Source: Bimastos eiseni
Taxonomy: Eukaryota; Annelida; Clitellata; Crassiclitellata; Lumbricidae
Reading direction: 5' to 3'
Assembly (NCBI GenBank): GCA_959347315.1
Contig: OY365810.1
Span: forward strand, 32,583,150 to 32,647,149
DNA: 64,000 nucleotides
Below are positions 16,276-62,000 of this stretch, piece after piece. The translations under genes and the position numbers were made by a program. The notes under the pieces are model-generated. The model had not been told where the DNA came from. It ran no database searches and saw nothing but the letters and a program-made list of their open reading frames with translations. The first letter of the stretch is position 1, and the number at the start of each line of letters is the position of its first letter.

Positions 16276-16283
16276 CCTTGACG

Positions 16284-16319
16284 TTATTCGTTCTATTCAT
16301 ATTATTCGTTCTATTCATA
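16284..16319. repeat. 18-bp direct duplication breaking the transposase
   Basis: The unit TTATTCGTTCTATTCATA occurs twice exactly (16284-16301, 16302-16319), followed by diverged partial copies to about 16345. Reading on the minus strand, the normal protein runs ...DPVMKEHI then TSREIHNNYLG. The repeat block lies exactly between and introduces a stop (TAA) after NNTNNV. Confidence 0.85.
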
Positions 16320-16322
16320 TTA

Positions 16323-17396
16323 TTATACGTTATTCGTATTATTCATAATATGTTCTTTCATAACAGGGTCATAATTTCCCAAAAATTCTATAAATGCTAG
16401 GAAATTTCCCTTATTCGCCTCATGCAGTTTTTCGCAAGTCCCTCTTAAGGCTAGGTTTTGCCCAGCCAGGGTCTTAATCAACGTGATGATTCTTTCAATA
16501 ACCTGTTTCCAATGTTGCGTCTCAGATTGAATCATTTTCTGATTAATGTCATCAACTGTTGTCCCACCCTTAATTCTCAATTCCAGCTCTTTCCAGTCTT
16601 GATAAGAATTGATGTGGGATGTTGAGGTTTCATGTCTTTTAATAATAAGAGACATATTTTTCCAGTCTCGACAGCCTTCATTAGACGAGAGAGAGAACTT
16701 ATTTGCACAAAACAATTTGCAACAAAAGCAATACACAGCATCACGTACATTGGAGTAAATCAACCAAGATCGCCTAACTTGTTCGCCGTTTGACATTCGG
16801 CGATTGAAATGAAATGACGAAAATTTTCTACCTTCTTTGTCTAAGGGAAACGCAGTCACATTATGTTGGTAGGGACCACATTGCACCAACCAGACTCGCG
16901 ATCTGTCATTTATTGCAGGCCAGTGAGATGGATCTGTGGAAACCATGTCATTCATGTTGTTGAAATGATCGTCTTCAACGACCATAGCGTTCCCTTTATC
17001 AGCAACGCCTGCATCCTCAGCATTTACATTTTGTACATCTTTGCATGTGCATGTAGGCCTTCCTGTAGGCTTATCACTTAAACAGTCGACGCAGTTGATA
17101 ACGCTTACGCTACATTGTATTTTATCATTGTTAAATTTACCTTCATTATCGCTGTATTCATTTTGCTCCTCTGTGCCGAATTTGAATTCCTCAGTTAGAT
17201 TTTGTTCTTCGTGGTCGGATGAGGAGTCTTCGTTGTCATTAGGCGCCTCAGTAGATGCCAGAAGTTTAGGTTCAGTAAACTTGAGGATGGCGTCTTTCTG
17301 TTTAGCTGCAGCCGATTCACGTATGAGCCTTATTTTTTTATATTCTGACCCAGACAATCGTTGTCTCTTTCTTCCACTACGTTTTGGATCCGCCAT
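16323..17396 (-). pseudogene. hAT transposase, N-terminal half with TTF zinc finger
   Basis: This part is 357 residues, starting MADPKRSGRKRQR with a basic nuclear-localisation-like start and an acidic region (about 50-90). The TTF-type zinc finger region begins at HWPAINDRSRVW (residue 158) and includes VYCFCCKLFC and a RHETSTSH Cys/His pair near residue 260. The DUF4371 start follows. The frame ends in the tandem repeat at 16284-16345 and continues in 14653-16275. The zinc finger binds transposon ends. Confidence 0.9.
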
Positions 17397-38831: not shown

Positions 38832-38837
38832 TTTATT
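38832..38837 (-). promoter_or_regulatory. Candidate polyadenylation signal of the ADAM17-like gene
   Basis: AATAAA on the minus strand, about 395 bases below the predicted stop codon at 39232 and the first AATAAA after it. An ATTAAA near 38930 is an alternative. Confidence 0.45.
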
Positions 38838-38974: not shown

Positions 38975-39132
38975 AAAGAGTAGTTTTTAACATAGTCTCT
39001 TGAGAGTAGTTTTTAACATAATCTCTTGAGAGTAGTTTTTAACATAGTCTCTTGAGAGTAGTTTTTAACATAGCCTCTTGAAAGTAGTTTTTAACATAGT
39101 CTCTTGAGAGTAGTTTTTAACATAGTCTATTG
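38975..39132. repeat. 26-bp tandem repeat, six copies, in predicted 3' UTR
   Basis: TAGTTTTTAACATAG recurs at 38981, 39007, 39033, 39059, 39085 and 39111, with a unit of exactly 26. Spacers vary by one or two bases (TCTCTTGAGAG). It lies between the predicted stop codon and the poly(A) signal, so six copies would be transcribed in the 3' UTR. Confidence 0.92.
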
Positions 39133-39231: not shown

Positions 39232-39264
39232 TTAAGATTTAGGAGAACGCCTCCCAGCTGAGTT
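39232..39264 (-). CDS. ADAM17-like gene, terminal exon (SPKS-stop)
   Basis: Acceptor TTTTGTTGTAG, then ten codons [10 protein letters not shown] and TAA at 39232-39234, phase 0. It fits the phase of all other tail exons and is short and basic/Ser-Pro-rich like them. Confidence 0.6.
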   Translation of the reverse strand, partial: NSAGRRSPKS

Positions 39265-42200
39265 CTACAACAAAATGAAAAGACAGTAAGACTAGTCAAG
39301 CAAATGATCTAGTGTATGATTTTGGAAGGTTGCATCTTAGAGGCATTATAAAAACTTATCTAGCAACATTATGAAAACTTATCTCTTTTCAGTCTGCATT
39401 AAAAATTTTCCCATTCACTCAGCAAATTTTGAAAGACTCTAAAAGCATTCAGATTCAGGTCAGATTTTCAGGGTTAGATAATATGTCGATCACCAAATGT
39501 CTGAATATACATCAGATCATGGTTCTGATGAGCTGACAGATGAAGCCTTTTGCAATAGACATAGGGGCGATACACAAGCAATTACTAATAATGACAATAA
39601 TAAAAAATAATGAGAACAGAATATGTACCAAAGCATAAATTTATCAAATAATTTGCTTATATCAGAAAATAGTTGCATGCAGCACTCTTGAAAGATACAT
39701 GAAAAGCAATATGCTAAGTGTCTTGATAAATGTACAATAATTAATAGTTCAATAGAAGCACACAAAACTAGTACAAACTCCAAGAAATGGCACCCAGTGC
39801 CATGAAAGCATTACTTTCAGGCCTCATGCAATACAAAAATAAAAAACCTTACCTCAACTGCTGCTCTGATATACTCCCTCCTTTTTTCCTGCAGCACACA
39901 AAACAAATTTGGTATGCAAAGTTTTTTTTAAAAGATTCAGCTAAAACCGGCCAAAAAAGAAATGTTGCCATGAACCAAATTCTGTAATCTAATAAATTAA
40001 TAATGTAATAATAAATTAATAATGCAATAAAGAATAAAAGTGGCACAGTTACTAAGAGCTTTTTTTACAATAGGCCTACCTAATATTGCATAATTTCTGA
40101 GTATAGAATTTAGCATATTCAACAGCAGAACAACGAACATTCTTGGAACTGCCTAACTACAACACCATTAAGACGAATTTTAGTTTCTCCCCAATGGACT
40201 TTATAGAGTCATTGCTCCAAAGAGAAATAGAGAGCAATGAAGAAGAACATCTCATTAGAGTCAATGAATGATTGGGGTTGAGTGTTGAGTACTAAGTCTG
40301 ACCCATCTGACACCCTATTTCCTCTTAAACTAAAGACTGATTGATAACAGATCAGGGCACATTCTGCAATTGTGTATAAGGAACTTTCCAAGTCACAAAA
40401 CACCATCTATTGCAGCAGGTTCTGAATCCACGACTGCACACTTGCAACAAAGCAACAAGGAAAGGCGTCAGATTACATTTTCGCATAAAGGCAATGACTA
40501 ATTCAATGTAACTTATTAATCAGTCTTCTAATATATGATAAATAACTTCTATTGTGTCGGTCTCTAAAGCACTAGGCATCAACCGATGGCACACCAACCT
40601 CGTGATCAGATCAATATCCAGAAACTAAATCCGCAAGACAGAGAGGCAGTCTATAGTGGTCACGCAATTTGAAAGAGCTAGGTTTTAAGTTGAGATGAAA
40701 TGATACAAGTGACTACGTAGAGTGCAAAGACACAGGGAGAGAGTTACAAGAAGTTGGTCCAGTAACGGAAACTGCTGGTTCACCAAGAACATTTCTTGAT
40801 TGATGTTTGACTAGACAAAGATAATAGATGACCTTGTTTACAAATGATACATATTGGGAATAAGAACTGAATTTTAGTATTGTGTTCGCCAGAACTCACA
40901 GTTTCTAAACTGTGAGACTCAATTTGAAATTAATTCATTATCCTGAAAATGGCTTTAGCCAACGAATTCTGAACTCTCTGCAGCTTCAGTATGTGTTTGA
41001 CTTACTGATATCAGAAAGGAGCAAGTCATAGTAATCTAGGCATTAGTAGGCAATCTGCATGACACAGTGAACATAATATACGGTAATCAAATGCAATCAA
41101 ATATTTATATAGTGCACCTTCAGATATCTACTCAGTGGCGTTCTCTGCGCTGGCCACAATGATGTTAAATTCCAGTTAGCAAGTAAAAATATATCTATTA
41201 GCAACTATAACTATAAACAGTAAGCTGAAAACAGTAATCAGTGGTGGGCCCACGCACAAGCGTGGAACCAACCAAAGGATTCCCGTCGACTGCTGACAGA
41301 TCAGGCTGTTCAGAGTCTCTGGTTCAAGTTGCATCAATGAGTAGAGTAGAGCGACAATTGGCCAACGCCGATCGCAGACACAGGACGTTGTCAATGAGTA
41401 GAGTTTCATTGTTGGAAGATAAACATCAAATGGTATATGGGCAAATAAGCTGACCTCTATCAAACATGCTACAATCAAATAGAAACGAAAGCTCAAGTAG
41501 TTGAATCATTAAAGAAAAGTTGAACTCACTGGTTGTTCACCTACTCGTCGTCCTCTTGGTGGACTAGAAGCTGGATAATGAGCAGGATGATCCTGATCCA
41601 ATCCATCAAACAAACAAAAAACCAATATAAAACATTGTTTTTCATTTCTCCAATGTGGCTCAAGTCGATAAGTTCTGGATTTTATATATATTTATATATA
41701 TATTTTATATATATTTATATATATAGTTTACTATAACTTGCTTCTTACTGGTATCAGTAAGTCAAACATACTGAAGCTGTAGAAAATCCAGAACTTATAG
41801 ACTTATCGAACCTATCGACTATATCTATATCTATCTACTACTATACTCATCAGGGACCACTCAGTGGTCACATCGAATTAAATAAACCCCACACTAAAAT
41901 AACCTATGGGTGAAGCCCAATCTAATTTTGAGAAGTAAAAGCTGATCCATTACGGAAAGCTGGAGGATGAGGACGAAATGGAGGAGGAAGAAGAGGAAAC
42001 ATAACAGGGAGAGAAAGAACTGCAGGAGGAGCAGGAACAGAAATTATTAGATGGAGGAGGAAACGACGAAGGAGGAGAAAAGGTAGAGGAGGATCAGCAG
42101 GAGGAGTAGCAGAAAAAGGAGGAGGAATGAGAAAAACAGCAATTAAAATACATACAAAGAGGAGGGGCAGTAAGTGCAGGCATATGGTACTTGAAGTTAG

Positions 42201-45200
42201 TATGAGCTAGTTTGTCTATTATAGTACTTAGGTCTCTGATGATGCATTTACTAGTTATGATTGAATTTGTGTAATCAGTGGTGGGCCCATGCACAAGCGT
42301 GGAACCAACCAACAGATTCCCGTCAACAGCTGATCGATGGCACGGGTGTTCAGAGTCTCTGGGCCGAGTTGTGCCAATGAGTAGAGCTGACAACTGTCAA
42401 CGCCGATCGCAGACACTGAACGAATAGACTCTCGATGGTGGAAGATAAACATCAAAAGGCACATGGAAAATATGCTGACCTCTTTCAATCATGCTACAAG
42501 CAGTAGAAATGATAGCTCAAGTAGTTGAACCATTGAAGAAAAGTTGCACTCACTTGTTGTTCAACTACTCGTCCTGTTATTTGACTAGAAGCTGGATGAG
42601 GAGCAGGTTGAGCCTGACCCAATCCATCAAAACAAAACAAAAAACAACATAAAACATTGTTTTTCATTTCTCCAATTTGGCTCAAATCGATGAGTTCTGA
42701 TTTCTCTACAACTTCAGTATGTTTGGCTTACTGATACCAGTAAGAAACAAGTTATAACAAACTAGGCAACTGGAAACTAGGCAACTGGAAACAAATCCAT
42801 TCACTAGAGATCATATAATTATATATATAGCGTCGAGGACATAGGCAAATGCCTAATTCTGTGTATCAAAATGATCATAATGCTCAATATGCATCAGTGA
42901 CTACTATACACATCAGGGAACACTCAGTGGTCACAATGAATTAAGTAAACCCCTAACTAAAATAACATATGGGAGAAGCAGATCCAATTTTGAGAAGTAA
43001 ATGTCCTGATCAATTAGCATGTCTGTATAGTACAATAGAGCTGAAAGGTTTCAGAGCACACCTGTTTAGATTCATAACTTTTAAACATCTTTTGCCAACA
43101 AAGGTCTTTCCAAATTAGCAGAAGTTTCATAAATAACAGATTGGAAGCAGATACAAAGTCCAGCCTACAGACGGGTATATCCTGAAGTTTTACGTTATCC
43201 ACTACACGTAGGATACGTAAGTGAGTGATTTCTATATACATGCATGTAAAAGACAGCGACATATACAATGCAACAACTCAACTTTCCAAATGCATAGATA
43301 TTCGAGAAATTACTGATTCTACATCATACATAAAATGGTACATGGGCTATTGTACTTATCTCTTTCAAACATGCTACGAGCAAGTAGAAACGAAAGCTCA
43401 AGTAGATGAGCCATTTAAGAAAAGTCTAACTCACCTGTCGTGCGTCAGCCTGTTGTCCTTTTGGTGGACTAGTTCGACCAGAATCATCATACTTATCCAA
43501 CTCATCCTAAACATAACAAACAACATAAAACATAGTGTGACACTTCACCAATATTCAAAGGCATTATTATATTTTATTCTTCCAAACACATTGTGGCATG
43601 GTGGCCGATTGGTTAGAGCTATTGGCCCGTAGCGTTCCGTGTGCGCTGAGTGAACGGGTTCGACCTTCGTTCGACGGTCACTGTGTAGGGACCTTGAGCA
43701 AGTCCTTCATGCACAATTGCTCTGCAGTACAACTGCAATTGCACAGTTGAGGCGTTTCCACTTGTGAGCAAAAATGTTGTTTCTGTTTTCCATGGCTTGC
43801 CCGTACTGCTGACTTTCGTTTTAGGGTGTAAGGCGTCCTAGTAGTAGTTAGGGCCTTGTTTACGGTGCCTTATAAATCGGCGTTGTTTATATTATAATTA
43901 TTATGATCATATGGCTTGATGTAATGTAACGCAATGTAATGGAATAACCTCTGGCTGATGGTCGAGGCTCAAAGCATGCTAAAAGAAAGTTAATTCAGAA
44001 GGACCCCTATGCCAACCGGATGATACAACACTGGATATAATTATTTTTATTATTACCATTATTATTGCTATTTTTAAGGTTCCTAAATAAGCATAGGATT
44101 TGGTTAATCATAGGCCTGTATTTAAAGATTCAAGCTCCCTCAGTCTTGGACTTCTATTTCTCAAAAGCATGGATATGTGATAGAAACCAACATGTGGACT
44201 TGAAATATGATATCATATAATCATAACCATAACCATCAGTTTTATTGCTCCAAAATACAAGATACATCAACTGACAATATGCATGTTTAACATTTCGGTG
44301 GAGACAAGAGGAGACCCAGAAGGGACCGTGGTCCCGCTAGGTAGGGCCACCTATATGTACACAAGGAAAAACAACTAAGGATTGACAATGAAACTTCACT
44401 ATATAATAACAGAGTTAAACAGAAGCAAACATAATAAACACATTTAAACATAATAAGCAATGTAGGAATCCAATTAAACGTCCTGCTCAGTAATCCATGT
44501 TCTCAAGAGATGCTTGAAAGACTTTAAGTTTGGAATATTGTGAAGGCGCTGAGGTATTTTATGCCATTCTTATGGTCCGGAACATCTAATTCAAAATTTA
44601 CAGGAGTTAGTACGAACAAATTCACTTCTGTATGAGGTTAGAATTCTCGTGTTGTAGGAGTGCATGTCTGAGGTTAGGTTGTAAAGATTAGCCAGCGAGC
44701 TAGGTAATTTATTGTTAAGTGTACCTATACATAAATTCACTGATCTGGAGTTGCCTAATTTGTGTAAGTTTTAGAATGCCAAACTTATCAAATAATTGCT
44801 TTGTATGATAATTATAGGGGGATCCGGCTATTAATCTAATTATCTTCTTTTGTAGGATTTGTATTCTTAGTAGTCAACAATCATAATATGAGGCCCAAAT
44901 CATATTACAATACGAAATGTAGGGATATATCATGGAATAGTATAATGTAAGCATAATATTTGTAGATAGTAGATAAGATATTCGTTTCAATATCCCTACG
45001 TTTTTTGCAATTTTTAGTGCAATTTGTTCAATGTGTTCGTTTCAAGTAATGTGTTGATCTACATATACTCCAAGGAATTTCACGGATTTTACTTGTGGAA
45101 TGTCAATATTATCAATTTGAACCTTTCCCTTCTGCGGTGGTATTGATTTCCTATGGGAGCAGATAAAGATATGTTGTTTTTGTCAGATTGAGGGATAATT

Positions 45201-48200
45201 TATTTGCCTTAAACCAATCCGATACTAGTGCAAGTTCCTGATTAAGTATTCTAAATAGTTCGTCATAGGATTTATGAGATAAAAAAACATTTGAATCGTC
45301 CGCAAAAAGAACGAAGTGAAGAACAGAGGATATGTTAGGAAGATCGTTGATGTATATCAGGAATAACAGAGGACCTAGTATGAAGCCTTGTGGTACCCCA
45401 TATTTTATTAATTTAAATATAGATTTTATGCCATTCCATCTAACTTGTTGCTGCCGATGACTAAGATAATCCTTAAATCATGAAAGAGGGATACCTCGGA
45501 TTCCATAATTTTCCAATTTTTTATTAGTATACTATGATTTACGGTATCAAATGCTTCGGCTAAATCTAGAAAAATTCCTATAGAGTAATCATTATTATCA
45601 ATGGCTTGAGTTATCTTATCCTGCATGTTTATGAGAGACATAGATGTTGTATGGCCTGGTCTAAATCCATGTTGCAGAGGGTGGAGGATATTTATTTTGG
45701 AAATGTATAGCTATATAGTCTGTGGTACATAACTTTTTCAAGTAATTTAGAGAAGTAGGGCAATATGGATATAGGTCTATAATTTGTAAAATCATCTCTA
45801 TTTCCCAGCTTGAATATTGGTGTAACCGTAGATCCTTTCGTTTCACTAGGTACTACTCCTGTTAATAATGAACAGTTAATTATATCTGCTAACGGGGTTG
45901 CTATAAAGGGCAGAAGTGGTCCGACTATACTTGGATCAAGTTGGTCCGGTCCAGAACTATGTGAGAGTTTGAGAGATTGGTTAATCTCCAGTAACTCTTC
46001 TGGTGATGTTGGGAGTAACTGCAAAGGAATTAACAGGTGGGGGTTTTAAATGCTTCATGAAGGAGCAAGTAGGATCTGGAATTTTTTCAGATAGATTTTT
46101 AGCAATGCCAGTAAAGTAATTATTAAACTTCTCAGCCATAAGCTCACTGTCAGTGATCATCTGACCATTTATGGTAAAAGATTCAATTCCCGCATCCCCA
46201 TTTTCGAGTTAACTATAGTTTTTATAATGTTCCAAGTCTTTTTAATGTCACATTTATATTTTGAAAATTCGGTAGCATAATAGTTACATTCAGATCTAAT
46301 TTTGATTGTTTTAAATTTATTTCTATATGCAATGAACCTATTTTTATTTATCTGGTCTGGATTTTTTATATATTTTAGGTACAGTTTATTCTTTTGCCTG
46401 CACGATTTAAGTAATCCATTTGTCATCCAAGGATGGTCATAAGAGCTACAACTGCGTTTATTGACTTGTTTCAGAGGGAAGGCCAAGTTGTACGCATCCG
46501 TATACATGTCGAGGAAGGTTTCATAAGCTTTATTGGGGTCTCTTCCTATACATATATCTGAGACTGAATCAAAATTTAATTGCGACAGGAGCATTCCGAA
46601 TTTATCCATGGATTGATCATTTACGAACCTGGTTGTGGTTGATTCCAGTTTGTCAATCTTTGTCACCCCCATTGAGTACCAGGCAATAATTGGCAAATGA
46701 TCCGAAATATCAGTAACAATAATGGATGAATACACAATTCTAGGCCAGATATTTGTGAAAATATTATCGATTAACGTTGAGGTAGTATCAGTAATCCTTG
46801 TGGTTTGTAGTATAGCAGGCAGAAAGTGGTAAGAAGAAATACAATCAAGGAAGCCGCTTGTCATTGCATGATCAGCGTGCTTGATTTGAGTAGATCAACA
46901 TTATAGTCGCCCATTAAAATTACTTCCTTCTTTGTTTCAGTTAATTCAGATAATAGTTGGTTAAATTCATCAATAAATAGTTCCAGATTTTGACCGGGTG
47001 GTCGGTATATAACCCCTATTATAAGGTCTGTGGTTTTCTGACGTGGAATTCTTATGAATAAGCTCTTGTAGGTACTGTGTGAGGAGTTATGGTTGAGTGG
47101 AGAAAATGGATGGAAGCCTATTTCTTTCTTAACATAAATTCCTACACCACCTCCATGACCACTTTCCCTGGGTTTATGTATAGAATTATATCCTTCAATC
47201 TGTACTGTGTCCGATAAGGTGGCCTCCAGCCATGTTTCGGTCACTGCTAGAATCCCAACAGGCAATTTGTACATGAGCTGTATGTCGGTGAGTTTAGGTG
47301 AGATACTTCTACAGTTGATGTGCATGAACGAACAGGCATGCATGGCTGATCCTCATTTCGAAGCTAATTGAGAAGGAGTGGTATAACCTTTATTCACTGG
47401 TCTACTCATGTAGTAATTATTATCCGGATCTGGGTGAGGATTGTTTATTAAGGGTTTATCCATTTGGTCCTCATTAAAATAATTGAGTTTCAGGCTTTGT
47501 ATAATTTTATATGAGCCTACTGTGGTTGTGGTGTCTGCAAGTCCACCAATACAATTGTTAAAAATATCTTCATCTACAATACGGTTAAATGGTAAAGATG
47601 ACTCAATACAGATACGACAGTACCAAGATCTAAGATCCCTAGAATTCAGCGGTGTAGTTAAGCAACACTTTTCGTGATAACAGTTTTTGCATGCAGAGCA
47701 TTGAATTAAACTATAGACAGCAGATTTAGAGCTCCTACATAAGCTGCATTTGTCCAAACTGGTCATTCGCGTATAATTGACAACGAATGGGTCACCAAAT
47801 AGACGGGGTCGTAGACACGGAGCATGACGTAAATTCGTAGAATAGTAATCAAATATTCACAACCAATGAATTTTAAATAAAAGTAAATAAGTAGCCTATA
47901 CCTGGCTTATTAATAAACTAAAAGCAAGAGATGTCTCACTAGGAAGCTCTTTGTTAGTGGATGAGAGTTAGTCCATGCATGGTTGGTCTACATCGGTAAT
48001 CGAGATCACCCGCTTTGGCTTCTCTGATGAAGAGTCTGTCTTCCGAACGTAGATAAGACCACCCGACGACCAGGTGGAGTGATACTTCTTTTCCCGGACC
48101 ATTTTCCTGGTGAGTGTGTAGATGTGAGCATTTGTTTTCGTCAGGTGTTCGTTGATGTAGACTTGATTAGGATATGATTATGATGAGCGCAGGGACTTTC

Positions 48201-51200
48201 TCGCAGAATAAACCTGGTCATGAGCTCGATGCAAGGTGAAGCTGATCAGAATTGGGTACTGCTTTCCTTTCCCAGTCCTCGGGGAGCCCTGTGAGCGTAG
48301 GCTATGTCATTCCTGTCAATTTGCAGACACAGTTGATTTCAACATAGGTCTAATGCCACAGCTGCGACATCGCGGGTTGGTTCCATGTTGATTTGCTGCC
48401 CAACTATCCCTGTTGATGAGTTTGGAGTAGGAGAGGTCTCAGGCAAACCGTAGACGACTAGGTTGTTTAGCCTGTTGATATTTTCCATATCATTTACCCG
48501 ATGATTCAACTTGCTGTTTTCCTCTGCTAGTAACGACAGTTTCGAGTTACTCTGTCGCCATCTTGACACACCTCATGAATACATGTATCCATGATATGAT
48601 AGAACATGTGAAGTTCAAATGGAACCAACAAATCTCATATGGGCTTCATAAGTCCTATGCATAACGTTGATGTAATCAGTGCATGCTGATAAGACTAGAA
48701 TGGCTAAAACAAATCAATAACCAGATTTAACACAAATAGGAGTCATCCTTACCTCTACTAGTTCATTAATAAGTGCCTCCGTTTCTCTGTAGGCTCTCCT
48801 GTCCTAAAAGCGAAAATCTCTCTTTTACCAAAAATCGACCCATCTTAATTAGATGAAACCTGAGCTTATCTTAACAAATAGACATTTGCTGCTGGCTAGT
48901 AGCAATGATGACATCAACAGCACACGATATATTTCACAAACAAGCAACAAGTGTAGGACATTTGCCCTGGACAATTGCCCTGCCCGATTTTGCGTTAAAC
49001 ATTTGCCCTATGGACAAAAGCCCCTCAATGAAAAAATTGAATGGGAAATATATTTTTCATCAATCCAAATTTGCTTTAAACAAGAAAATAAGCAATTAAT
49101 CATCATGGCATGAAGGACACAATGCGAGGCAATAATCTACGTAATTGGGTTAATTCACTGGTGTGAATTTAATACACAACTCAGCCAAAGGATAAGTTAA
49201 CTTAAGAATTTCTCGTTCTCTTCATAGATGTATAAATACTGAAAGTCAGTGATATGTATTATTATCTGCCTTTAAATGCAGTCGCTAACAAACTTTATTA
49301 TGAGCTTAAGTGACATGCATTATCATTATAGAGCCCCTATCTCTTGGTTTGTTGGCATGGGCATTTGTCCTAGTTCAGGTGGCTTTTGTCCGGAGGGCAA
49401 TTGTTGGGGCCAACTGTCTGGGGGGGGGGGGGCAACTGTCCAGGGTGGAAGAGGGGGTCAATTGAACGTTCCCCTCAAGGAGTAGATGACAGAAGTTTCA
49501 AGAACGTCATGAATATGAACTCAGTCCAGCTGCCATGGCATCAGTGCATTGTGCGAAATATATGAAGGTTATTTCTTGCTCTATGCCACAGATCAGAGAT
49601 AACCTAACATCACAAATATGTAGGCAAGCGAAAGAAATTGTACAAAGCTTCCAAGAATTTGCACTTGAAGGCGCCCAGAAGCACCTCGTCTTAGACAGAG
49701 ATTCTGCATGTAATTTCTACACTCATCTGAACACTGCTCTTTTCTGCCGAGGTTGGGCCATGAGGGCTCCTGAATACCTTGGAAAGTATCTATATAAGCG
49801 CTCTGAAGAACATGGTCAAGACGGCAGGGAGAACATATAACCAGCACCCAAAGAGGGGCTAGCTGATGACATTGGTGGTACACTGAATATCCAGTGACTA
49901 TTTTTATCAGCCTGTGTAGTAAGGCAGGTGACGGTCAGTTACATGGCTCTTAATGTAAATTAGAAAAGAGTCGATCATGCAGTAATCCTACAGACTATTA
50001 CAGATCACACGGTGGGTTAAAAGCAAAACCGTGGCAAAGTGCCCACAAGGAAACTGCATATGAAGAGCAGACTACATGGCAGTTTCTGATAAGAGAGTCT
50101 GCAGCAAAGGTGAAAAAGAAATAATTCATTGTCGAATGTTTAACAAGAACATAAGCAAGATATTTTGATGAGTTACCGATGGAATTTATTAATTGTGTAC
50201 AGCCCAAATGGTTTAAAAAAGAAAACAATGAAATGTTCACATGAGGTTAAATGAATCAACCTACCAAATAGCTGACAAAACAGCTCAGAGGAACCCAGAC
50301 GATGAGTGAAAGTATCATAATCGTAACGACAATATTGCTTCGCATAAACTTGACTGCAAGAAGAACAGCAGAAAGGAAATGCAATGAATTCTACAAAGTT
50401 AAATGGATACATTAATGAAAACCTGCACAAGCACAGAACGACCGATGTTCAAAGACAAAAGCAACAACAACTACAAAGAATACTACCTCAAGACCACCAT
50501 ATCAATGATATTCACAATCATACTATACTGCCTCCTCAGCTTGACCTCAGTTTGAGCAACCTGTATTCTGACTTCAGCTTGACCTACCTGGATTCTGACC
50601 TAAGCTTGACCTACCTGGATTATGACATTGATTTGACCTACCTGACCTGGCTCCAAAAACATTCAAAACAACTAAGCTATAGTGACTTAATTTAATATAG
50701 CTATGGTCAGTGAATATGCTGGTCTCTCAATGAGGCTTTTACGTGGTCCTGAGAAAGTCTGGATATTTACATCACACTTCATTATAACTGGAAATTCAAC
50801 TTTGTTGCAGGAAGCATCTTTCTTACCAAACGCTGATGCCGAAGTGAAATCAAAAAGCGCCCATAATCTTGCCATCGGGTTACGCGAAATAGTCAAGCAT
50901 TCTCCCTAGAAACATAATAACTACATATTTTAAATAAATTCGATATCCTGCCACAGTGAAAGCAAGCACAGTTGTCAGCTAAATCAGACATCGAATCAGG
51001 AAAAGGCGTCTTCAAAGTAACCAATTTACCCGAACATTTGTTCAAAGCATGTTTCCTGTAGTAGTGGTCTGCTCCTCAAAAGGATTTGAATCATGTTGAG
51101 GATCACTAACAGAAAGTAGAGTACAGAGAGAATGACCAGAAATGTGATAGGCCTATACAGATGATGCTAACGTCTGCATTGCAGATTCCGTATAGGCAAG

Positions 51201-51691
51201 GTATTCCATCTGAGAGCAGCTGAAAAGAGTTCGTTTCCTCAAGAATCAGCGGCAAGCAAATGTTGTTTACATCCAAACAACATCTCTTGCAAGCATCTAA
51301 CTCTGAAAAAGAGACAACAGAAGCAATATATTACAAGAATAGGAAATGAAATGTATAATATTTAATACTTTCTGCAACCGCGACTAGTTCTACAGCAGGT
51401 GTGTCAAAAAGCCAGCACGCGGGCCAGAAATGACCCTCGAAGCCTTGTCCAAAAACAATACAATTGAGAATAAAAGGTCGAATTGGTCATTTTACAGCTT
51501 TATTTGTTTTCTGTGATGTTTGTAACTGATAATGTATAATTCAACTATTTGTATGGCCCCTCTGAGATTCTACCCTATTTTCCTCATGTGCCCTCAGCAC
51601 TCTGGCCTGCCACTTGCTGAAAAATATTACTACTGGCCATCACAAAAACGTTTGACACTCAAGTTCTACAGATTGCTAGCTGACACATTCC

Positions 51692-51726
<35 letters not shown>

Positions 51727-52457
51727 TATATATTAGTAGCAATTACAGCTCATCCCCTATGTGGGCGGCATGGTGGCCCATTGGTTAGAGCGGTCGGCCT
51801 CATCTGAGGCAATCACTGTGTAGGGACCTTGAGCAAGTCCTTCACACAATTGCTGTGCAACATAACTGCAATTAACTGCATAACTGTGACACAGTGGCCG
51901 ATCGGTGAGAACGGTCAGCCCGAAACGTTCAGTGTGTGCTGACCAAGCGGGTTCAACCCTCGTCTGGGGAGTCACTGTGTCCCTACACAGTGACAAGTCC
52001 TTGAGCAAGTCCTTTGCTCTGCAATACAACTGCAAATGCGCCGTTGAGGTGTGTGTATTTACTTCTGAGCAAAAAATGTTGAAATAAGGGCAGTATCAAA
52101 TTTCGGAAATAAAATAAAAATAAAATAATTGTGCAATTGAGGCATGTGCACTTCTGGACTCTGGGTAACTTAGGAAGAAGGTCGAAATCAGAGGCAGTTG
52201 TATTGCACATGGCTCAATAGAGAAGAATTGCAATAATATAACTCTGCTTCATAGTTAGCAATTATTATATAACTTCATTTTATCGTATCTTTACATTATC
52301 CATTACTATCATATCTATCGACTTCTTAGAACCAATGCCTAACTATGCTCACATGGTAATCAGATGGCACCTGTAATGAAGCAACTAGTCCAGTACTCAA
52401 AGGCTACACTACACTTCCTCTCAAGTCTGAAAAGTACCCATGTGCATAATAAGATAA

Positions 52458-52501
<44 letters not shown>

Positions 52502-55500
52502 TATACATATATATGTCCCAGCTAGAACAAAAACATTAGACTAATCCTTCTGTTGCTAGGCAGCAGCATTGGTTATGACATAATCGCCACCTTGCACGGA
52601 TGTTAACAGCTAAATTCGTACATAATGTCGTCATACATTCGTACCATACTAGCAATCATACTGTGGTATGTCAGTTAGAAAATTATTATAAAATATATAT
52701 GTATAAATAACAATATTCCCAAGTAGAAATGTCTGTATGTATATATCATGGCAGGTCCCCTGGCACAAACACCCGCAACTGGGAGACACTGACCACAAAG
52801 GTCTTAATGTAAAGTCCCCCAGACACTGACCCACACTAACAAAACCATGACCAAGACTGACCAAACAAGTGCTGCCAACCCAAGGTACTGACCCAGACTG
52901 ACCAAACACTGCCACCCCAAGGTACTGACCCAGACTGACCAAACACTGCCACCCCAAGGCATTGACCTAAGATTGATAAACTGCTGTCAACAAGAGGCAA
53001 TTACCCAGACTGACAAAGTCAGTCTAACCAAAACATTCAAAATCGCAAAATGTACACTTACGTTCTTCACAGCTGCAAGTTGTACGGCCTACACTTTCAC
53101 AAAGGCTCCTGCAAACTCCAAGCACACATATCCCTCTGCACAGAAAAATATAAGAGTGATAGAGTAACATAAATGTGTTGTAACAAAATGTAATCATTTA
53201 AAATGATGCAATCCTTAAATTTAGCAAGCACAGATTTATACAAATGTATAAACTACGAAGTCATGTGTGTAGAAAGCAGACAAAACTGGTGTATGATAAT
53301 ACATGTCTATCTGTAAAGAACGTTCAGCTGCTCACTACACCCTACTTTCAAGTTACAAGACAAAATATCCTGTACCCCATATTGTGCCTAGAATCAATAT
53401 AGTTAATAATCTCGGCATAGGATGCTTTAGCGCCATTGTTTTTGGCAATTACAAACCTACACACATTATTTTCTTAATAAACAACAAAACGTACCACCAT
53501 CCACTGAGAAGGCCTCAAACTTTCTACTTTGAGTCAATCACAATATGACTTAGAGTTACAGGTGTAACAAGGTTTTGAGAGTGGGGGGCATAATTTCTAA
53601 AATATTGTGCCACCCACTTTTTGAATGTTGCTCCCCAGAAATTTGAAAAATGGGGGGCACAAATTATCTTAACAAAAGTCATCTTAAAGAGCCATAAAAG
53701 AAACTTGAAAAAGAACCGATTTGGGGGGCACATGAGGAGCACTGAGCACTAAAACTGGGGGGCTTTGCCCCCCCCCCGTTTTGAAACTGGGGGGCCGATG
53801 CCCCTGCCCCCCGCTTCTTACACCCCTGCTTAGAGCCACACTAGTGTGCTAATATCCATTTGGAAGGTCTCCAAGGTCTTGGATCATACATTTGTAACTG
53901 ATAAGTAAGTAGTGCCATATAACTTTACATACTAGAATAACAGTACATGCCAAAATGCAAATGTATGGGTTTGTCTAAACATACACAAATGTTCAAAACT
54001 GGAGCTTATTGTATTAATAAACCAGATTTCCCAAAGGTGATTGACCCATCTTCAGCTTGAAATACAAAACCTGAGTTGAGCTAAAACAGGACATTAATGT
54101 AAACCTTTCAAGTGCCAACCGTCTGAAGTTATAAATCTGCCAACTTATACAATAAGTCTGAATCACAATTTTCTGACGACTGAATTTGGAACTGAAGGAA
54201 GGACAGAAGGCAACAATAAACAAAATAATAAAATTTAATCTAAAACAAACACAGTTCAAGCTTTACCTATTGAAACATTCTGTCCCATTTGGCTTTGAAG
54301 TTGCACTTGGACAAGTTCCACTTAGTCCACTGCACAAATTTAAGTAGTCAAAGAATTTAACAACTACAAACAATGTTCAACATAACTTATAGAAATCCGA
54401 ATGTTTCAAGCATGTATAATGCACAATCATGTAGCAAATTATTAAAATAATTCTTTTAACAACTGAGTGAGGTGAATGTGGACTAAAAAGTGACTGGGAA
54501 ACTGGGAAACCAATGCACTTTGCCATTAAAGAGTGAAATGTGGTTGCAACATGACTCAAGACAAGTTTAATAAGCATTTGAAGGAGAGGAATTTGTGGAC
54601 CATGTAATGTGGTTCGACAAAATAAAAAAATCAGAACGGATATACGTTCATACTGATCGTAAAACAATATAATATTTACCTCTTTGAACCCTGACTTCCT
54701 GAAGTAGTAACCCATGGACCCTCGGTTCCTGAGCACATCTTAGCCATGAATATAAGTAAGCATGTATGTATGCATTTATGTATGCATGCACACATACATA
54801 CATGCATACATACATACATACATACACACATACATAACCATCAGTTTTATTGCTCCAGACCTACATGGTACATCAATTGACAATATGCATGTTTAACATT
54901 TTGATGGAAACAAGAGGAGACCCAGTAGGAACACCTATATACTTGTACATGGAAAAATTTATAGATGGCTAAGAATTGACAATGAAACTTCACTATATAA
55001 TAACAGAGTTAAACAGAAGCAAACATAATAAACACATTTAAACATAATAAGCAATGTAGGAATCCAATTAAACGTCCTGCTCAGTAATCCATGTTCTCAA
55101 GAGATGCTTGAAAGACTTTAAGTTTGGAATATTGTGAAGGCGCTGAGGTATTTAATGCCATTCTTATGGTCCGGAACATCTAATTCAAAATTTACAGGAG
55201 TTAGTACAAACAAATTCACTTCTGTATGAGGTTAGAATTCTCGTGTTGTAGGAGTGCATGTCTGAGGTTAGGTTGTAAAGATTAGCCAGCGAGCTAGGTA
55301 ATTTATTGTTAAGTGTACCTATACATAAATTCACTGATCTGGAGTTGCCTAATTTGTGTAAGTTTTAGAATGCCAAACTTATCAAATAATTGCTTTGTAT
55401 GATAATTATAGGGGAATCCGGCTATTAATCTAATTATCTTCTTTTGTAGGATTTGTATTCTTAGTAGTCAACAATCATAATATGAGGCCCAAATCATATT

Positions 55501-56002
55501 ACAATACGAAATGTAGGGATATATCATGGAATAGTATAATATAAGCATAATATTTGTAGGCAGTAGATAAGATATTCGTTTCAATATCCCTACGTTCTTT
55601 GCAATTTTTAGTGCAATTTGTTCAATGTGTTCGTTCCAAGTAATGTGTTGATCTACATATACTCCAAGGAATTTCACGGATTTTACTTGTGGAATGTCAA
55701 TATTATCAATTTGAATCTTTCCCCTCTGTGGTTGTATTGATTTCCTGTGGGAGCAAAAAACAATATAAGTTATTTCTGTCAGATTGAGGGATAATTTAAT
55801 TTGCCTTAAATCAATCCGATACTAGCGCAAGTTCCTGATTAAGAATTCTAATTAGTCCATCATAGGATTTATGAGATAAAAAACATTTGAATCGTCTGCA
55901 AAAAGAACAAAGTGAAGAACAGATGATATGTTAGGAAGGTCGTTGATATTTACATGATATATACATACATACATGCATGCATAGATACATACATTACATA
56001 TA

Positions 56003-56033
<31 letters not shown>

Positions 56034-59000
56034 CCTACATACATACAAACATACATACATATATAGATACATGCATGCACGCTCGCAAGCACACACACAC
56101 AAACATACATGCACGCATACATACATAAATACATACATACATAGTATTACATACATACATACATAGTATTACATACATACATACATAGTATTACATACAT
56201 ACATACACACATACATAGTATTACATACATACATAGTATTACATACATACATAGTATTACATACATACATACATAGTATTACATACATACATGCATGCAT
56301 TCACGCTCGCACTCACACACTCAAACATACATGCATGCATACATACATACATACCTAATGCATACATACATACATGTGCACATGTATACATACACTCATA
56401 TATATAATCATATACACAATACATGCATACATACGTCCGTGCATACATACATTACATACATACATATTCAATGCATACATACATACATACATGCAATCAT
56501 ACATCCATACATACATACATGCATTCATGCATACATACATATACCACCATTGTTGTACCCTGGGATATAAGTTGATACGCCCATCCCGCTATTGTGGGAA
56601 ACCGAGGATTACGATTATAAGGCTTCCCGCTATAGCGGGGTCCCAGGTTCAAAGTGTTAATGATCATAACTTCGAGATTTTTACAGCATTCAAAGAGCAC
56701 AGTTGCAGGAACTAACTATTCATCACAGTATGTCAAAAATGTAGGATCAGTACCAGGTCAATGCCTAGGTTTGGCAGAAATACAGTCAGACAAATATAAG
56801 GATGGTGTGGAGAATTGGAGCCATGAGAGAGCCAAGGATAGTAGGGGGAAACGAGGTGCAACTTAAGCCATTATCAAATGAAATTCTGATTCTTTTTATG
56901 AATACAGTAATAATTATTAATCAGATACATAGTCAAGGAAACATGTGGGGTTTAGTTTTGGAATTTTTATATTGAACTTCGTGATATTTTCTACAATTTT
57001 AGGTCATAATAAAAGTAATATATTTATTTTGGGGATTTGAACCCATAAAATTCCTTAAATATGTCGTTGTTAGTACTTATCTTATACCATAATTCTAACA
57101 GAAATTGAATCACAATCATTACTAATAACATATAACTGATTTGGTTCAAGGCAAATTGCAACGATTAAAGTTGGATGGACTTAATTAAATGTGCAAAGCA
57201 TTATTAGTCAATGGCGCAAAGATGATTAGTCTATAAACAACACAAGCCCAGAAACATCTAAATGAGAAGTTTTTTTTACTAAGGGGCTGTTCACATATTA
57301 TATAATGCTCAAGGGGTAGGTGGGTGGGTTCCTGTTTGTTAGCGTTATATTGTGTAGGGTGGGGGGTTAGGTTGAAGGTTTTGTTATATAACAAACTTTT
57401 TTCAGCTTATGCTATTTTGCCTGTTTGCCTGCCAATCGGAAATTCCATGTACCACTGGCCTTTTTTAATCGAAGTTCACAAGACGTTGTGAACCTAAACT
57501 AGCACCACCAGCCAGCTGTCACCTGGTGAATTGATTCATTACTTATAAATCCACTTTTAAGAATTTTCTGATTACAATTTTAACAATTTCCTGTGCATAG
57601 CTTTAAACGCTCTTAAATTCAATCCTGTGTGATTTGTTTTGATTCTGGTTTAAATTAAAATTAATTCACTTGAAATAATTATTTAGTTAGGTATTATCAA
57701 GATGTTTGATTTCATTTTCTATGGTAGGCCTACGAGTAAACCGTTTATATATGTTTTTCTTAAATACACAATTGTAGTCGTAGTATACACTCAGTATCAT
57801 GCGCTATTAAATAGGCAAAGTTGTTCCACAAACTTATCGATAAATACCTGATAGTGCAACATTTAACCAATCGATTCTGTGTGATACTGTAATCCTCATT
57901 TCTAGTGCAAAACAGGAGGGAAAAAAATGGTGTTTTTATAAAAGTTTCAAATTAGGCAATACAATTATGTCGATTGTATGTCTTTTAATATGCTCATAGA
58001 TTGGGGTGGGGTAGGGGGGTAGGTAGCATATCTGTTATATAATATAGGGGTGAGGGGTCACAGCTGCTGTTATATAACGTTATTAGGGGTAGGGGTGGGT
58101 CAAAAATTGAGATTTTATGCGTTATATAATATGCGAACGGCCCCTAAGAGTAGAAATCCAGTCCATTAAAAAATGCACAAAGAGTTGTGAAAGGCCCAAA
58201 GTATTTATTAAAAGTGAATGAAAATAGATATATAGTGACTGCACACACATTTCATTACCAAAGTCGATTGTGCATCATTTTTATTGTAGAGAAAGTAACT
58301 ATATGTATAGGCACTTCCTATATGACAAGACAAAAAACCATAACAATTTAATGATGACCTGCATTGTCTTTCCCGTCACTTTTAGTACACTCTTGACGTG
58401 ATAGTGGTAAAGGACAGAGGCAACAAGAGTCCAAGAGGATGCAAGCTAAGCTACTCTGTAGTAACGATGGTAGTAGTAGTAGATGATCAGACAACAAAGA
58501 ATCTGTAGCCAGAAAATGCCCTAATTATTATTATTATTTTAATCATTAATTATTTCACTTCAGATACTATCACCATCACTACCACCACCACTACTTCCAA
58601 CACATTTGCTACAATTACTTTTATTCTTATTACAACTACTTCTTTTACCACTACCACTAATACTTGTACGCCTAAAACTTCTGCATGTACAAATTAATAT
58701 TAGCTAGGTTGGTTACATACAAAAGGATACTTGCAGTAACTGTCATGCTGACAAACATCAGCAGATGTATTGAAGCATTTCACTTTAGCAGCTTCTGGTA
58801 TAGCTTGACAAATATTATCGCAGCATAAATGATTTTTGTCACTGTAAGATAAAAACTGACAATGAATACACACAGAAACTCGAATTGAGAAGATTTCATT
58901 CTAAACAGAAATGAAAGATTTGTTTAAAAGGCCTAGTCTGAGTTAACATGAAATAAAACTAATTGCCAGACAAAAGAAATAGCGAATCATAGGTATGTAA

Positions 59001-62000
59001 GAAACATATTCTTTTAATCAGCCGTCTGCATTTGCACGATATGTACAGACAAAATTTGCAAGTACGATCAAAAAAATTGATATATCATAAGCATAGAAAT
59101 TTATAAAATGCCGGATAGCAACTGAAGGCCAGGCAGGAATAAAAGCCAATGGGGATAAACGCACTGATAAAATAATCTAATGATGAAACAACACCGGATG
59201 CAGCTGCATACCTCTTAAATATGGTATGGTTGGCATTGGTTGCAACATTTATCCAACACAATATAATGAATTGAAATACCGACCTCTCCATTAGTGCATC
59301 CAAGTACTGCAACAGGTATTTAAACCTCAGCTGGGTCTTCTCTAAAAGGTCTTTCTAAAAGTCTTCCTGTTCCCTTTCTGCCACATTGCTGCGTCCTCTC
59401 AGATCTCGCAATTGGCTTGACCTTTTTCTTCCTCGTGTTAGAACCACAATGGCTAAATCCAGGTCCTCTCTCTGCATCGGTCACTCTCTATAGAATGGAC
59501 TTCCATCCTCTCTGTGCTCTACCACCTACCCTGGCTGCATCTCTGCCTTCTTGTCTCACCTCAAAACCTTACTTTTCTTCAGGAGTACATTGCACTGGAA
59601 GCGCTCCTGAAGGGTTTACGCTGTGAGAAATGCTTAATTACCGAACAGATACAACACAATGCAATAAAGGGACTACAAAGCAATAAAGTGATGATTTGAC
59701 ATGGGATAGATTTTCCAATATGTGTCGCATATGAGATGCATCATACAAGTGGTGTATATGAACATGTGAAGATAATCAGATATGAGCTACTTAACTACAT
59801 TGAGCATTTGGCTTCAGCTTGCAATCACTGGTACAGCAGAGGTCGCCACCAGTTCCAACGTCGACCCCAGGATCACATTCTTCCTCAGTGTCTATGCGAT
59901 AGTTCCCACAGAAGATATCCTTCTGCTCTGAAAAACAGAAACTAAGAAACTGAATCCCAGTAGGACAGTGGAAAAGCGGAGTGCTGTTGCGTTGCAGTGG
60001 TTATGCCTGTTTCTGAGGTCCTCATCGGAGAAAATGAATCTTTTGTCCCCAGGGTCATGTATTTCAGGAACTTTCTATAGCTAGAGACATACAAAGTAAG
60101 TAAGTGTAATCTCTAGTGAATATGCTACCAGATAGAATAATAGAGCAAACAGGAGAAAGCATGCTCCAGTTGAGGCAAAGGATTGAGGTCGAAAGGTCGA
60201 GTGAAGTGGACGGAGGGAGGAAGCAGAATGCGAATGAATTATCAAGTCAATCAGACAAGACCCCGCTGAGCCTTAGGAATTAAATATTGAATGCAACCAT
60301 GGAGAGAGAGCCAATTTGAGCTCATGAGTAGTTTCTTGAAGGGGTATTATATATAAATGCTCAGTATAAATGAATGAAGTTCATCAACAATAAAGGTAGA
60401 GATGAAGAGCAGTGGGGAAGGTAGACTAATACAATGCACGATGGAAGCTATGATGTCAACACCAAACGAATCTAACTGTATTTACACACTTTGGTGTATA
60501 TAACATAAGACAAGACATTAAATGCAACTAAATATAACAATGTCGTTTCAAAATAATCTGTTCAAACATTTTAATTGCAACAGTCATCAAACTAGGGTGT
60601 CATGTTAACAAATGATTGAATGAAGAATGTACTTTTGTATGCTTGGTCAAAATTGTTCCAGATATCACAAACCACAGACTGTCAGGTGGTAACATTCTGA
60701 TTCAACCTCTATGACTGCAAATTCACTGTTATTGTAGGCAAACATTTTCATTGCATTCTCTAAGTATCTCTACATGCTTTTCGAAAGCACCCACTAAGCT
60801 AGATAGATATATATTCGTTTATTTAGAAATAACACAATCTGACAATAACGCAGAAAGCTTACAAGAGCGACAGTGATGAACAATAGTAGCTAGAATTAAT
60901 AACAAACTAGTACATAAATGTTTTTGTATGATGATCTGGGGATAAATTGAGTAGTCTCTGGGTGGGAGAATATGGTTGTGTGCTCTAGGGTTTAATTGGC
61001 GCATGGAGTGGGGACAGAGTGGAGGAAGTAGTTGGTGAAGAACATGCTTGGGGTTGTGTAAAATGGAGAAAAGGAGTCTGACATCTGATGATGTAGCTTC
61101 AACTATGATATGACCCCAAAAAAGTTCTCAGTCTCTAGACAGATATCTAGAAGGGTAACAATATCTAGTCATATTTTGTAGATAAGTTTATTATATGTCA
61201 CAGTAAATTTCGTACAAGCAAGGAAATGGTAAATAATGTGGAGCACTGTGAAGACCTGATCTTTGGATTCTTATCCTACTGGCTAAAATCAAGTAACCTT
61301 TTCACAAAAGAAGACATCATCACACATATCTTATCATCATGCTTAAATAGTTATTTATTGCAGATATCCTACAATTAGAAAGATTTGTTCATGTACATTG
61401 TGATCAATTTAAGTATTCTATACCATATGAAGTATTCTTGTCAGATATAAGAAAGGCTACCAACGTAAGTACTTGCTCAAACAACCCCACCTGTGGTAGT
61501 GCTAGACCCAAGCCTGGAGAAAGGTGGAGGACACTGATAGTCATCAATGTTATGACATAGTATTGTAAATCAGCAACTAACCAACCAACTGGCTCAATTC
61601 TTCACTGGCAAGCATGCACCAAATGCATGAGAAAACCTATGCAGCTTACCGTTAAACGGTTAAACTATAGACTGTAAATAAAAAAAATATACTGTCAAAG
61701 CAAGAAGCTTTTGATTCCAATACACCACCAATTGATATCCTGGAACATGGTGAAAACACCTAAAACACAATGCCAGAAACACATAAGAATTGCAAAATTG
61801 CACTGCCATTAAGACTTTAGCATATATTGTACAAATTTAATCTATATTGTATGGCATCTAAGCATTTGTAAAGTGCCTTTAGCAGGGTAAAGAAGCGCCT
61901 CCAGTGCACATGGACTACGAGAAAAAACAGGTTTGAGAAAAGCAAAAAAGAAGAGATAGAATGGTAGAGCAACCAGTTGAAGCATGTTCTAAAGTAGGGA

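What the first reader, a model, noticed from the sequence alone, without database searches (positions are those of the whole stretch)
41228..43550. Triplicated exon units build the cytoplasmic tail of an ADAM17-like protease
Three direct genomic units each contain one short phase-0 exon with the same donor (GTGAGT) and related peptides: TSPPKGQQADARQ, PASSQITGRVVEQQ and PASSPPRGRRVGEQP. Because all are phase 0, any subset can be included or skipped without breaking the frame, which could give tail isoforms with one to three Ser/Pro/Arg modules. The tail of human ADAM17 carries phosphorylation and SH3-type sites; a modular duplicated tail would be a new arrangement as far as I know.
Basis: partly seen in the sequence, partly recalled or inferred. 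Interest (0 to 1): 0.78.

Follow-up and report, generated by a model that had tools for sequence, protein, structure and literature searches.

The report
Triplicated tail exon in worm ADAM17
In what looks like an annelid worm, one small exon for the inner tail of an ADAM17-like cell-surface protease has been copied in tandem to three in-frame copies, and a neighbouring sister gene has two; it is real but resembles a known trick of ADAM15, and whether the copies make different protein forms is untested.

Summary
The triplication is real. Three units, 0.9-1.0 kb apart (A, B, C), each hold one phase-0, multiple-of-three exon ending in GTGAGT. A whole-genome search (660 Mb) found the exon-bearing sequence three times, all here. 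The gene is ADAM17-like, and the exons sit between the transmembrane/juxtamembrane exons and two predicted terminal tail exons. Corrections: the animal looks like an annelid, not an echinoderm (mitochondrial gene order and code). The gene is one of three tandem ADAM17-like genes; one neighbour carries two copies of the same exon, from an apparently separate duplication, and the other possibly one (seen by eye only). The tail has no PxxP motif, so the SH3 idea is unsupported. Modular ADAM tails from in-frame exons are known in ADAM15. The peptides are no more conserved than the flanking introns, suggesting a tail where frame and length matter more than sequence. No RNA was available, so isoforms are unproven. 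In this assembly the gene also lacks one splice donor in its disintegrin region and may be decaying. In passing: in four of four ADAM17 genes examined here, the catalytic glutamate appears to lie on a 6-nt microexon.

The parts
43435..43506 (-). tail module exon A, 72 nt, phase 0-0
   Evidence: donor CAG|gtgagt
42554..42613 (-). tail module exon B, 60 nt, phase 0-0
   Evidence: acceptor pyrimidine tract 8/17
41530..41592 (-). tail module exon C, 63 nt, phase 0-0
   Evidence: acceptor pyrimidine tract 8/17
43328..43552 (-). recognisable duplicated unit around exon A
   Evidence: blastn to units B and C
42271..43016 (-). duplicated unit B (aligned parts 42271-42703 and 42900-43016)
   Evidence: blastn to unit C
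41234..41952 (-). duplicated unit C (aligned parts 41234-41682 and 41837-41952)
   Evidence: blastn to unit B
48753..48803 (-). juxtamembrane exon JM, DRRAYRETEALINELVE, phase 0-0
   Evidence: equivalents in both tandem neighbours; aligned to P0001
39853..39888 (-). predicted tail exon D, EKRREYIRAAVE, phase 0-0
   Evidence: possible equivalents in both neighbours seen by eye only
39232..39264 (-). predicted terminal coding exon E, NSAGRRSPKS-stop
   Evidence: possible AATAAA at 38837; no neighbour or cross-species support
50265..50353 (-). transmembrane exon
50827..63391 (-). distal metalloprotease, disintegrin and membrane-proximal exons (63391-63270, about 61759-61697, 59927-59795, 58841-58731, 54329-54267, 53135-53062, 51302-51172, 50905-50827)
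   Evidence: donor of 59927-59795 not canonical
44290..47856 (-). LINE-type retroelement in several broken frames (PHD, endonuclease, reverse transcriptase) in the intron between JM and A; not part of the module
41966..42246 (-). dispersed repeat inside the B-C intron; not part of the module

Best explanation
An ADAM17-like gene in a three-gene tandem cluster of a probable annelid has had one small tail exon duplicated in tandem twice. Because the exon is symmetric (phase 0-0) and a multiple of three, each copy could be added without breaking the frame. The spliced tail is most likely JM-A-B-C-D-E, about 104 residues, with B and C (weaker acceptors) perhaps sometimes skipped. The modules are short and probably disordered; what is preserved is frame, not sequence. 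The likely consequence is lengthening and retuning of a tail that affects protein stability or trafficking, not a set of SH3 docking sites. Shown: the duplication, frame, splice-site dinucleotides, ADAM17 identity, position, and the same exon in a neighbour gene. Inferred: splicing of all three, skipping, disorder, function.
For: Repeats and frame; three genomic matches. A profile of the A/B/C units run over 184 kb, both strands, gives one further significant hit, between JM and the next tail exon of neighbour g2 (E 3.8e-5; next 0.58). g2 has a second copy about 1 kb on (156 nt, 69%, E 6e-8). The g1 and g2 modules separate with 100/100 support, so duplications look independent (5 sequences). 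P0001, an uninterrupted ORF of the same clade (99/98 support), joins JM to a D-like segment through about one module length (D match by eye). Exons are no more conserved than flanking introns. Removing the mouse ADAM17 tail strongly lowers protein level (PMC8191336 abstract).
Against: No transcript of this gene was found: the tail search (621 candidates of about 338-1076 aa) gave none at E<=10, and a four-sequence profile (about 204-648 aa, reported at E<=1e-20) gave no new clade member. The disintegrin exon 59927-59795 lacks an in-phase GT donor, so this gene or allele may not give a full protein. The single copy in neighbour g3 was found by eye, did not rank among the eight best in the scan and is missed by the profiles. 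D equivalents in g2 and g3 are by eye. The divergence tests are small, non-independent and mixed.
Confidence: 0.66

Rival explanations
1. Regulated cassette or mutually exclusive exons: A, B and C are chosen by regulated splicing to give tail isoforms with one to three modules.
For: All copies are in frame, so any subset is allowed; acceptors of B and C have the weakest pyrimidine tracts of the gene (8/17, against 11/17 for A); flanks are conserved between units; ADAM15 does this (PMC2148059 passages).
Against: No RNA evidence. Two other exons of the gene (JM and 54329-54267) are nearly as weak at 9/17. In-frame length removes the usual need for mutual exclusion. Docking or selector RNA structures were not tested.
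Confidence: 0.3
2. The gene is a recently broken copy in a tandem cluster and the triplicated exons are relics without a protein.
For: The donor after 59927-59795 reads TGTAG|TTAAGT where the neighbours have AG|GT; the only nearby GT is one base upstream and shifts the frame to a stop. The donor of 51302-51172 is weak (GTTAGC).
Against: The other exons found are open, inside and upstream of the window; tail exons stay open and in frame; a single-base assembly error or an allele would look the same.
Confidence: 0.25
3. The units are only intronic repeats with chance open frames.
For: Short exons; peptides poorly conserved.
Against: A homologous exon with intact splice sites lies at the same place in a neighbour gene. 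For g1 alone, keeping 3n length twice and gaining no stop twice has a rough chance of 0.02 (values times 1/9).
Confidence: 0.06
4. The units are copies of a dispersed transposable element that became exons.
For: A dispersed repeat lies in the B-C intron, and 62 nt at the far end of unit C (41239-41300) has one match elsewhere, on C17.
Against: The exon-bearing part matches only three places, all here; the dispersed repeat lies outside the aligned unit parts.
Confidence: 0.02

Closest known systems
ADAM15 cytoplasmic tail (human) with alternative exons 19-21
   Same: Several small tail exons, three of them 72, 75 and 72 nt (20a, 20b, 21a), divisible by three, whose use changes the tail in modular fashion (PMC2148059 passages); the tail printed in PMC4380453 shows, by eye, three PLP[PA]DP segments.
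   Different: ADAM15 variants carry up to seven PxxP motifs and their mRNA variants are reported; here there is no PxxP and no cDNA, and the gene is ADAM17-like.
ADAM17/TACE
   Same: Disintegrin, ADAM17_MPD, transmembrane segment, tail.
   Different: A divergent paralog, one of six ADAM17_MPD loci in its genome; its tail has no evident similarity to the vertebrate tail beyond proline-directed Ser/Thr sites (SPPK, SPPR here; QTPGR in the human tail printed in PMC4380453).
Tandem duplicated exon arrays such as Dscam and Snap25 (search listing and abstract starts only)
   Same: Tandem duplication of an exon inside one gene.
   Different: Those abstracts describe mutually exclusive use; here nothing about use is known and exclusivity is not needed for frame.

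Membership tests
ADAM17 family | membrane-proximal domain ADAM17_MPD | tested here: met
   2.3e-12, 47.4 bits against cut-off 26.2
ADAM17 family | disintegrin domain followed by MPD and one transmembrane helix | tested here: met
   Disintegrin 6.9e-10 and MPD; alignment through the transmembrane segment to ADAM17
ADAM17 family | HExxHxxGxxH zinc site | tested here: inconclusive
   Complete only if the 6-nt exon AATTTG beyond the window end is spliced in; splicing not shown
ADAM17 family | iRhom-dependent maturation and sheddase activity | not testable with these tools
   needs cells; a search for iRhom in the genome did not complete
ADAM15-type modular tail | multiple tail exons of 3n length that keep the frame | tested here: met
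   72, 60, 63 nt
ADAM15-type modular tail | PxxP SH3-binding motifs in modules | tested here: not met
   none in the whole 104-residue predicted tail
ADAM15-type modular tail | alternative inclusion seen in mRNA | not testable with these tools
   no RNA data held
Mutually exclusive exon cluster | one and only one copy per mRNA, often with docking and selector RNA pairing | not tested
   no RNA; pairing not searched
Exonised dispersed transposable element | many genomic copies of the exon-bearing unit | tested here: not met
   3 matches in 660 Mb, all at this locus, (very common words are skipped by that search)

The most novel reading that the evidence does not exclude
Annelids have a tandem ADAM17-like cluster in which the same tail exon is duplicated again and again, separately in each gene (three, two, possibly one copy), with peptides diversifying faster than the introns around them, so that the tail is a fast-evolving, splice-tunable module; together with a skippable 6-nt exon carrying the catalytic glutamate, splicing could set both the tail and whether the protease is active.
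Probability: 0.12. Interest if true: 0.68.

Novelty: new variant of a known kind. Interest (0 to 1): 0.36.

Why it matters
ADAM17 controls release of growth factors and cytokines, and what its tail does is not settled: dispensable for rapid activation but needed for normal protein level in mice (PMC6451368 passages; PMC8191336 abstract). Related genes with three, two and possibly one copy of one tail exon would be a natural test of whether tail length alone matters. It also suggests that in-frame tail exons as modules, known for ADAM15, arise in another ADAM branch. It is otherwise an ordinary kind of event.

Tried and rejected
Tried without result: a tail-only protein search (621 candidates, none at E<=10) and a four-sequence profile search (20 of 5369 candidates at E<=1e-20, no new member of the clade), so no transcript of this gene was found. 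No A/B/C-type module was detected near the other three ADAM17_MPD loci (about 10 kb downstream each); the profile also misses the possible g3 copy, so a divergent or more distant module there is not excluded.

Rejected: dispersed element; SH3 modules; echinoderm. Positive selection is only hinted at: exon versus flank identity A-B 52/78% p 0.0004, A-C 60/77% p 0.015, B-C 83/89% p 0.37 (83/82%, p 1, with a longer flank), g2 pair 58/71% p 0.07; B-C has 10 nonsynonymous and 0 synonymous changes, p 0.054, but A-C (last 12 codons) shows no excess, p 0.44. These pairs are not independent and the A alignment is shifted by an acceptor move. A fourth unit: flank sequence recurs at 40964-41042 but no exon was identified there.
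Full report
What was checked. The three exons lie on the minus strand at 43506-43435 (A), 42613-42554 (B) and 41592-41530 (C), each with AG acceptor, GTGAGT donor, length divisible by three and no stop in phase 0. The surrounding DNA is duplicated: B-C 82% over 453 nt, A-C 73% over 235 nt, A-B 71% over 234 nt. In the whole 660 Mb assembly the exon-bearing 242 nt of unit C has three matches (three candidates, three scored), all here (the search skips very common words). A wider query (40 of 3913 candidates scored) gave 45 matches: 5 at this locus, 39 elsewhere over a dispersed repeat at about 41966-42246, which lies between the aligned unit parts, and 1 elsewhere (C17) over 62 nt at the far end of unit C.

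The gene. Exons upstream encode the end of the metalloprotease, disintegrin, ADAM17 membrane-proximal and transmembrane regions (ADAM17_MPD 2.3e-12, Disintegrin 6.9e-10; ADAM17 chain 8snm 7.7e-51). The chain transmembrane 50353-50265, JM 48803-48753, A, B, C, D 39888-39853, E 39264-39232 is phase 0 at every junction from the end of the transmembrane exon on and ends in TAA. A LINE-type element with PHD, endonuclease and reverse-transcriptase matches sits in the JM-A intron; its 44228-45351 part is 93% identical to 54833-55947.

The organism. The finding implies an echinoderm. Contig 118 is a mitochondrial genome. Its COX1 reads best with the invertebrate code 5: several lysines that I recall as conserved are AAA, which the echinoderm code would turn into Asn. 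The order is nad4L-nad4-(rRNA region)-nad1-nad3-nad2-cox1-cox2-(atp8 region)-cox3-nad6-cob-atp6-nad5, all on one strand. Pfam confirms nad4L, nad4, nad1, nad3, cox1, cox2 and cox3, and gives nad2 only as a general NADH-oxidoreductase match. nad6, cob, atp6, nad5 and atp8 I read by eye from the frames, and the rRNA genes I inferred from the gap. That order is the common annelid one; this is recalled and comes from no call. I take the animal to be an annelid; the species is unknown.

Neighbours. Six loci in the genome match ADAM17_MPD; three are in tandem on one contig, all on the minus strand. Coordinates below continue the window numbering; the contig C5 position is the number plus 32583149. 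Neighbour g2 has JM at 95812-95762, then DLVNNDTDSVSITPSEASVQPVGGVAQQS at 93886-93800 and KMASGVEPVSAALSETSAGPTERLAQRR at 92904-92821, both with GTGAGT, then a possible D-like exon at 91754-91704, by eye. In a scan of 610 candidate exons g2's first copy ranks first for B (score 28, next 20) but is not among the eight best for A or C; the second copy ranks first after the first copy itself (30, next 23). The g2 pair shares 156 nt at 69%, E 6e-8. A profile built only from A, B, C with flanks finds g2's first copy (E 3.8e-5) and nothing else significant in 184 kb on either strand. Neighbour g3 has JM 140643-140593 and, by eye, one possible copy ERLNKSHTKNESEGVKQ at 139714-139664 (donor GTGAGA) and a possible D-like exon at 136910-136860. 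The g3 copy was not among the eight best, the profiles do not detect it, and I had its coordinates one base off. So the count is three, two and possibly one. In a tree of the five clear copies the g1 and g2 modules separate at 100/100, which points to separate duplications, though gene conversion could give the same picture. The other three loci differ: two (C1:1397402 and C8:5411911) have JM exons of the type DRKR... and the third (C1:55055266) DHKKK..., with no module detected in about 10 kb downstream of each; since the profile misses the g3 copy too, this absence is weak.

Other species. A search with the window protein gave 56 proteins at E<=0.001 among 3702 candidates. The best, P0001 (625 aa, source lgn, no name), groups with g1-g3 at 99/98 support on 116 columns of the membrane-proximal to juxtamembrane part (27 rows); inside that group it sits beside g2 with weak support (91/44), so the three tandem genes need not be younger than the split from P0001's species. 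Its tail runs CYLDRRAKDERLKILREVVE-EVSGGKIPGLTAPMTVPDSHDKK-MLRENIRRLTIEVNN: a JM segment (aligned), about one module length, and a D-like segment (by eye). As an ORF spanning many exon junctions it is probably from cDNA. It supports the chain JM-module-D, not the triplication. Tail-only and profile searches found no further member.

Constraint. Exon identity is at or below that of the flanks (A-B 52 versus 78%, p 0.0004; A-C 60 versus 77%, p 0.015; B-C 83 versus 89%, p 0.37, or 82% with a longer flank, p 1; g2 pair 58 versus 71%, p 0.07). Frame is kept: the simulated chance of no stop is 0.62 for B-C, 0.25-0.27 for A-B and A-C, and 0.30-0.32 for the g2 pair. For g1 alone, with 1/3 for each of two length changes, the rough chance is 0.02; the g2 exons were chosen by a scan that demanded open frames, so I do not add them. 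The acceptor of B and C is displaced relative to A by 15 nt, keeping phase (alignment, read by eye), and has the weakest pyrimidine tract of the gene (8/17; A 11/17; the other exons 9 to 15).

Function. The predicted 104-residue tail has no PxxP and no PPxY; it has three Ser-Pro sites, two of the form SPx[KR], in A and C, not B. Human ADAM17 selected no SH3 domain significantly in a phage screen, though binding to Eve-1 is reported (PMC4380453 passages). The tail of mammalian ADAM17 is dispensable for rapid activation (PMC6451368 passages; PMC3288042 seen in search listing only) but needed for normal protein level in mice (PMC8191336 abstract). I therefore favour an effect on stability or trafficking through tail length or Ser-Pro sites; this is inference. 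ADAM15 gives the precedent for a tail changed in modular fashion by in-frame exons (PMC2148059 passages). Listings of searches (ADAM17 with echinoderm, ADAM17 with annelid, tandem exon duplication, annelid ADAM families, duplicated exons with cytoplasmic tail) showed no title on duplicated ADAM17 tail exons or annelid ADAM17; none paired ADAM17 with exon duplication, and the library holds only open-access papers.

A result against the gene being intact. The exon 59927-59795 ends TGTAG|TTAAGT; the neighbours have TGCAG|GTTTAT and TGTAG|GTGAGT. The only GT close by is one base earlier and shifts the frame to a stop. This may be a real lesion, an allele or a base error.

In passing. The catalytic motif is split so that the Glu would lie on a 6-nt exon flanked by phase-1 introns: AATTTG in g1 (64692-64687, just beyond the window; HEFGH), AACTTG in g2 (HELAH with its next exon), AGTTGG in g3 (HELGH) (expected 0.03-0.07 pattern matches per intron, observed 1 in each of 3) and AATTTG in the gene at C1:1397402. 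That is 4 of 4 genes examined; the genes at C1:55055266 and C8 were not examined. Of 67 fetched homologues, 59 have HExGH or HExAH, 4 lack the region or motif, 2 (P0021 spider, P0044 bivalve) read LVTAHGHNWG as if this exon were left out, and 2 (P0037, P0048) have unrelated residues before GHNWG. Either gene prediction misses an old microexon or it is skipped; I cannot tell which. A search for microexon with ADAM17 listed 2 papers, neither about this by title (listing only).

Noticed in passing
64687-64692 in window numbering (beyond the window end; C5:32647836-32647841); equivalents in g2, g3 and the gene at C1:1397402: Predicted 6-nt microexon, phase 1-1, carrying the catalytic Glu of HExxH in 4 of 4 ADAM17 genes examined; two annotated proteins (spider P0021, bivalve P0044) read as if it were left out.
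   Followed up: partly
59790-59800: Non-canonical donor TGTAG|TTAAGT after a disintegrin exon, where both tandem neighbours have AG|GT; possible lesion, allele or base error.
   Followed up: partly
C5 tandem cluster: window gene, C5:32684641 and C5:32728846: Three ADAM17-like genes in tandem on the same strand, plus three more ADAM17_MPD loci in the genome.
   Followed up: yes
44290-47856 and 54833-55947: LINE-type retroelement in the JM-A intron; its 44228-45351 part is 93% identical to a copy in an upstream intron.
   Followed up: partly
14653-17396: hAT-type transposase ORF (Dimer_Tnp_hAT 1.5e-12 in 14653-16119) beside a second ORF with only a weak zinc-finger match.
   Followed up: no
38977-39132: Six copies of a 26-bp tandem repeat about 100 nt downstream of the predicted stop codon, perhaps in the 3' UTR.
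   Followed up: no
G000 contigs C15, C16, C6 (two), C5, C4: Besides the mitochondrial contig C118, six matches over the whole cox1 profile in large contigs, with TGA codons kept, suggesting nuclear insertions of mitochondrial DNA (35 cox1 matches in all).
   Followed up: no
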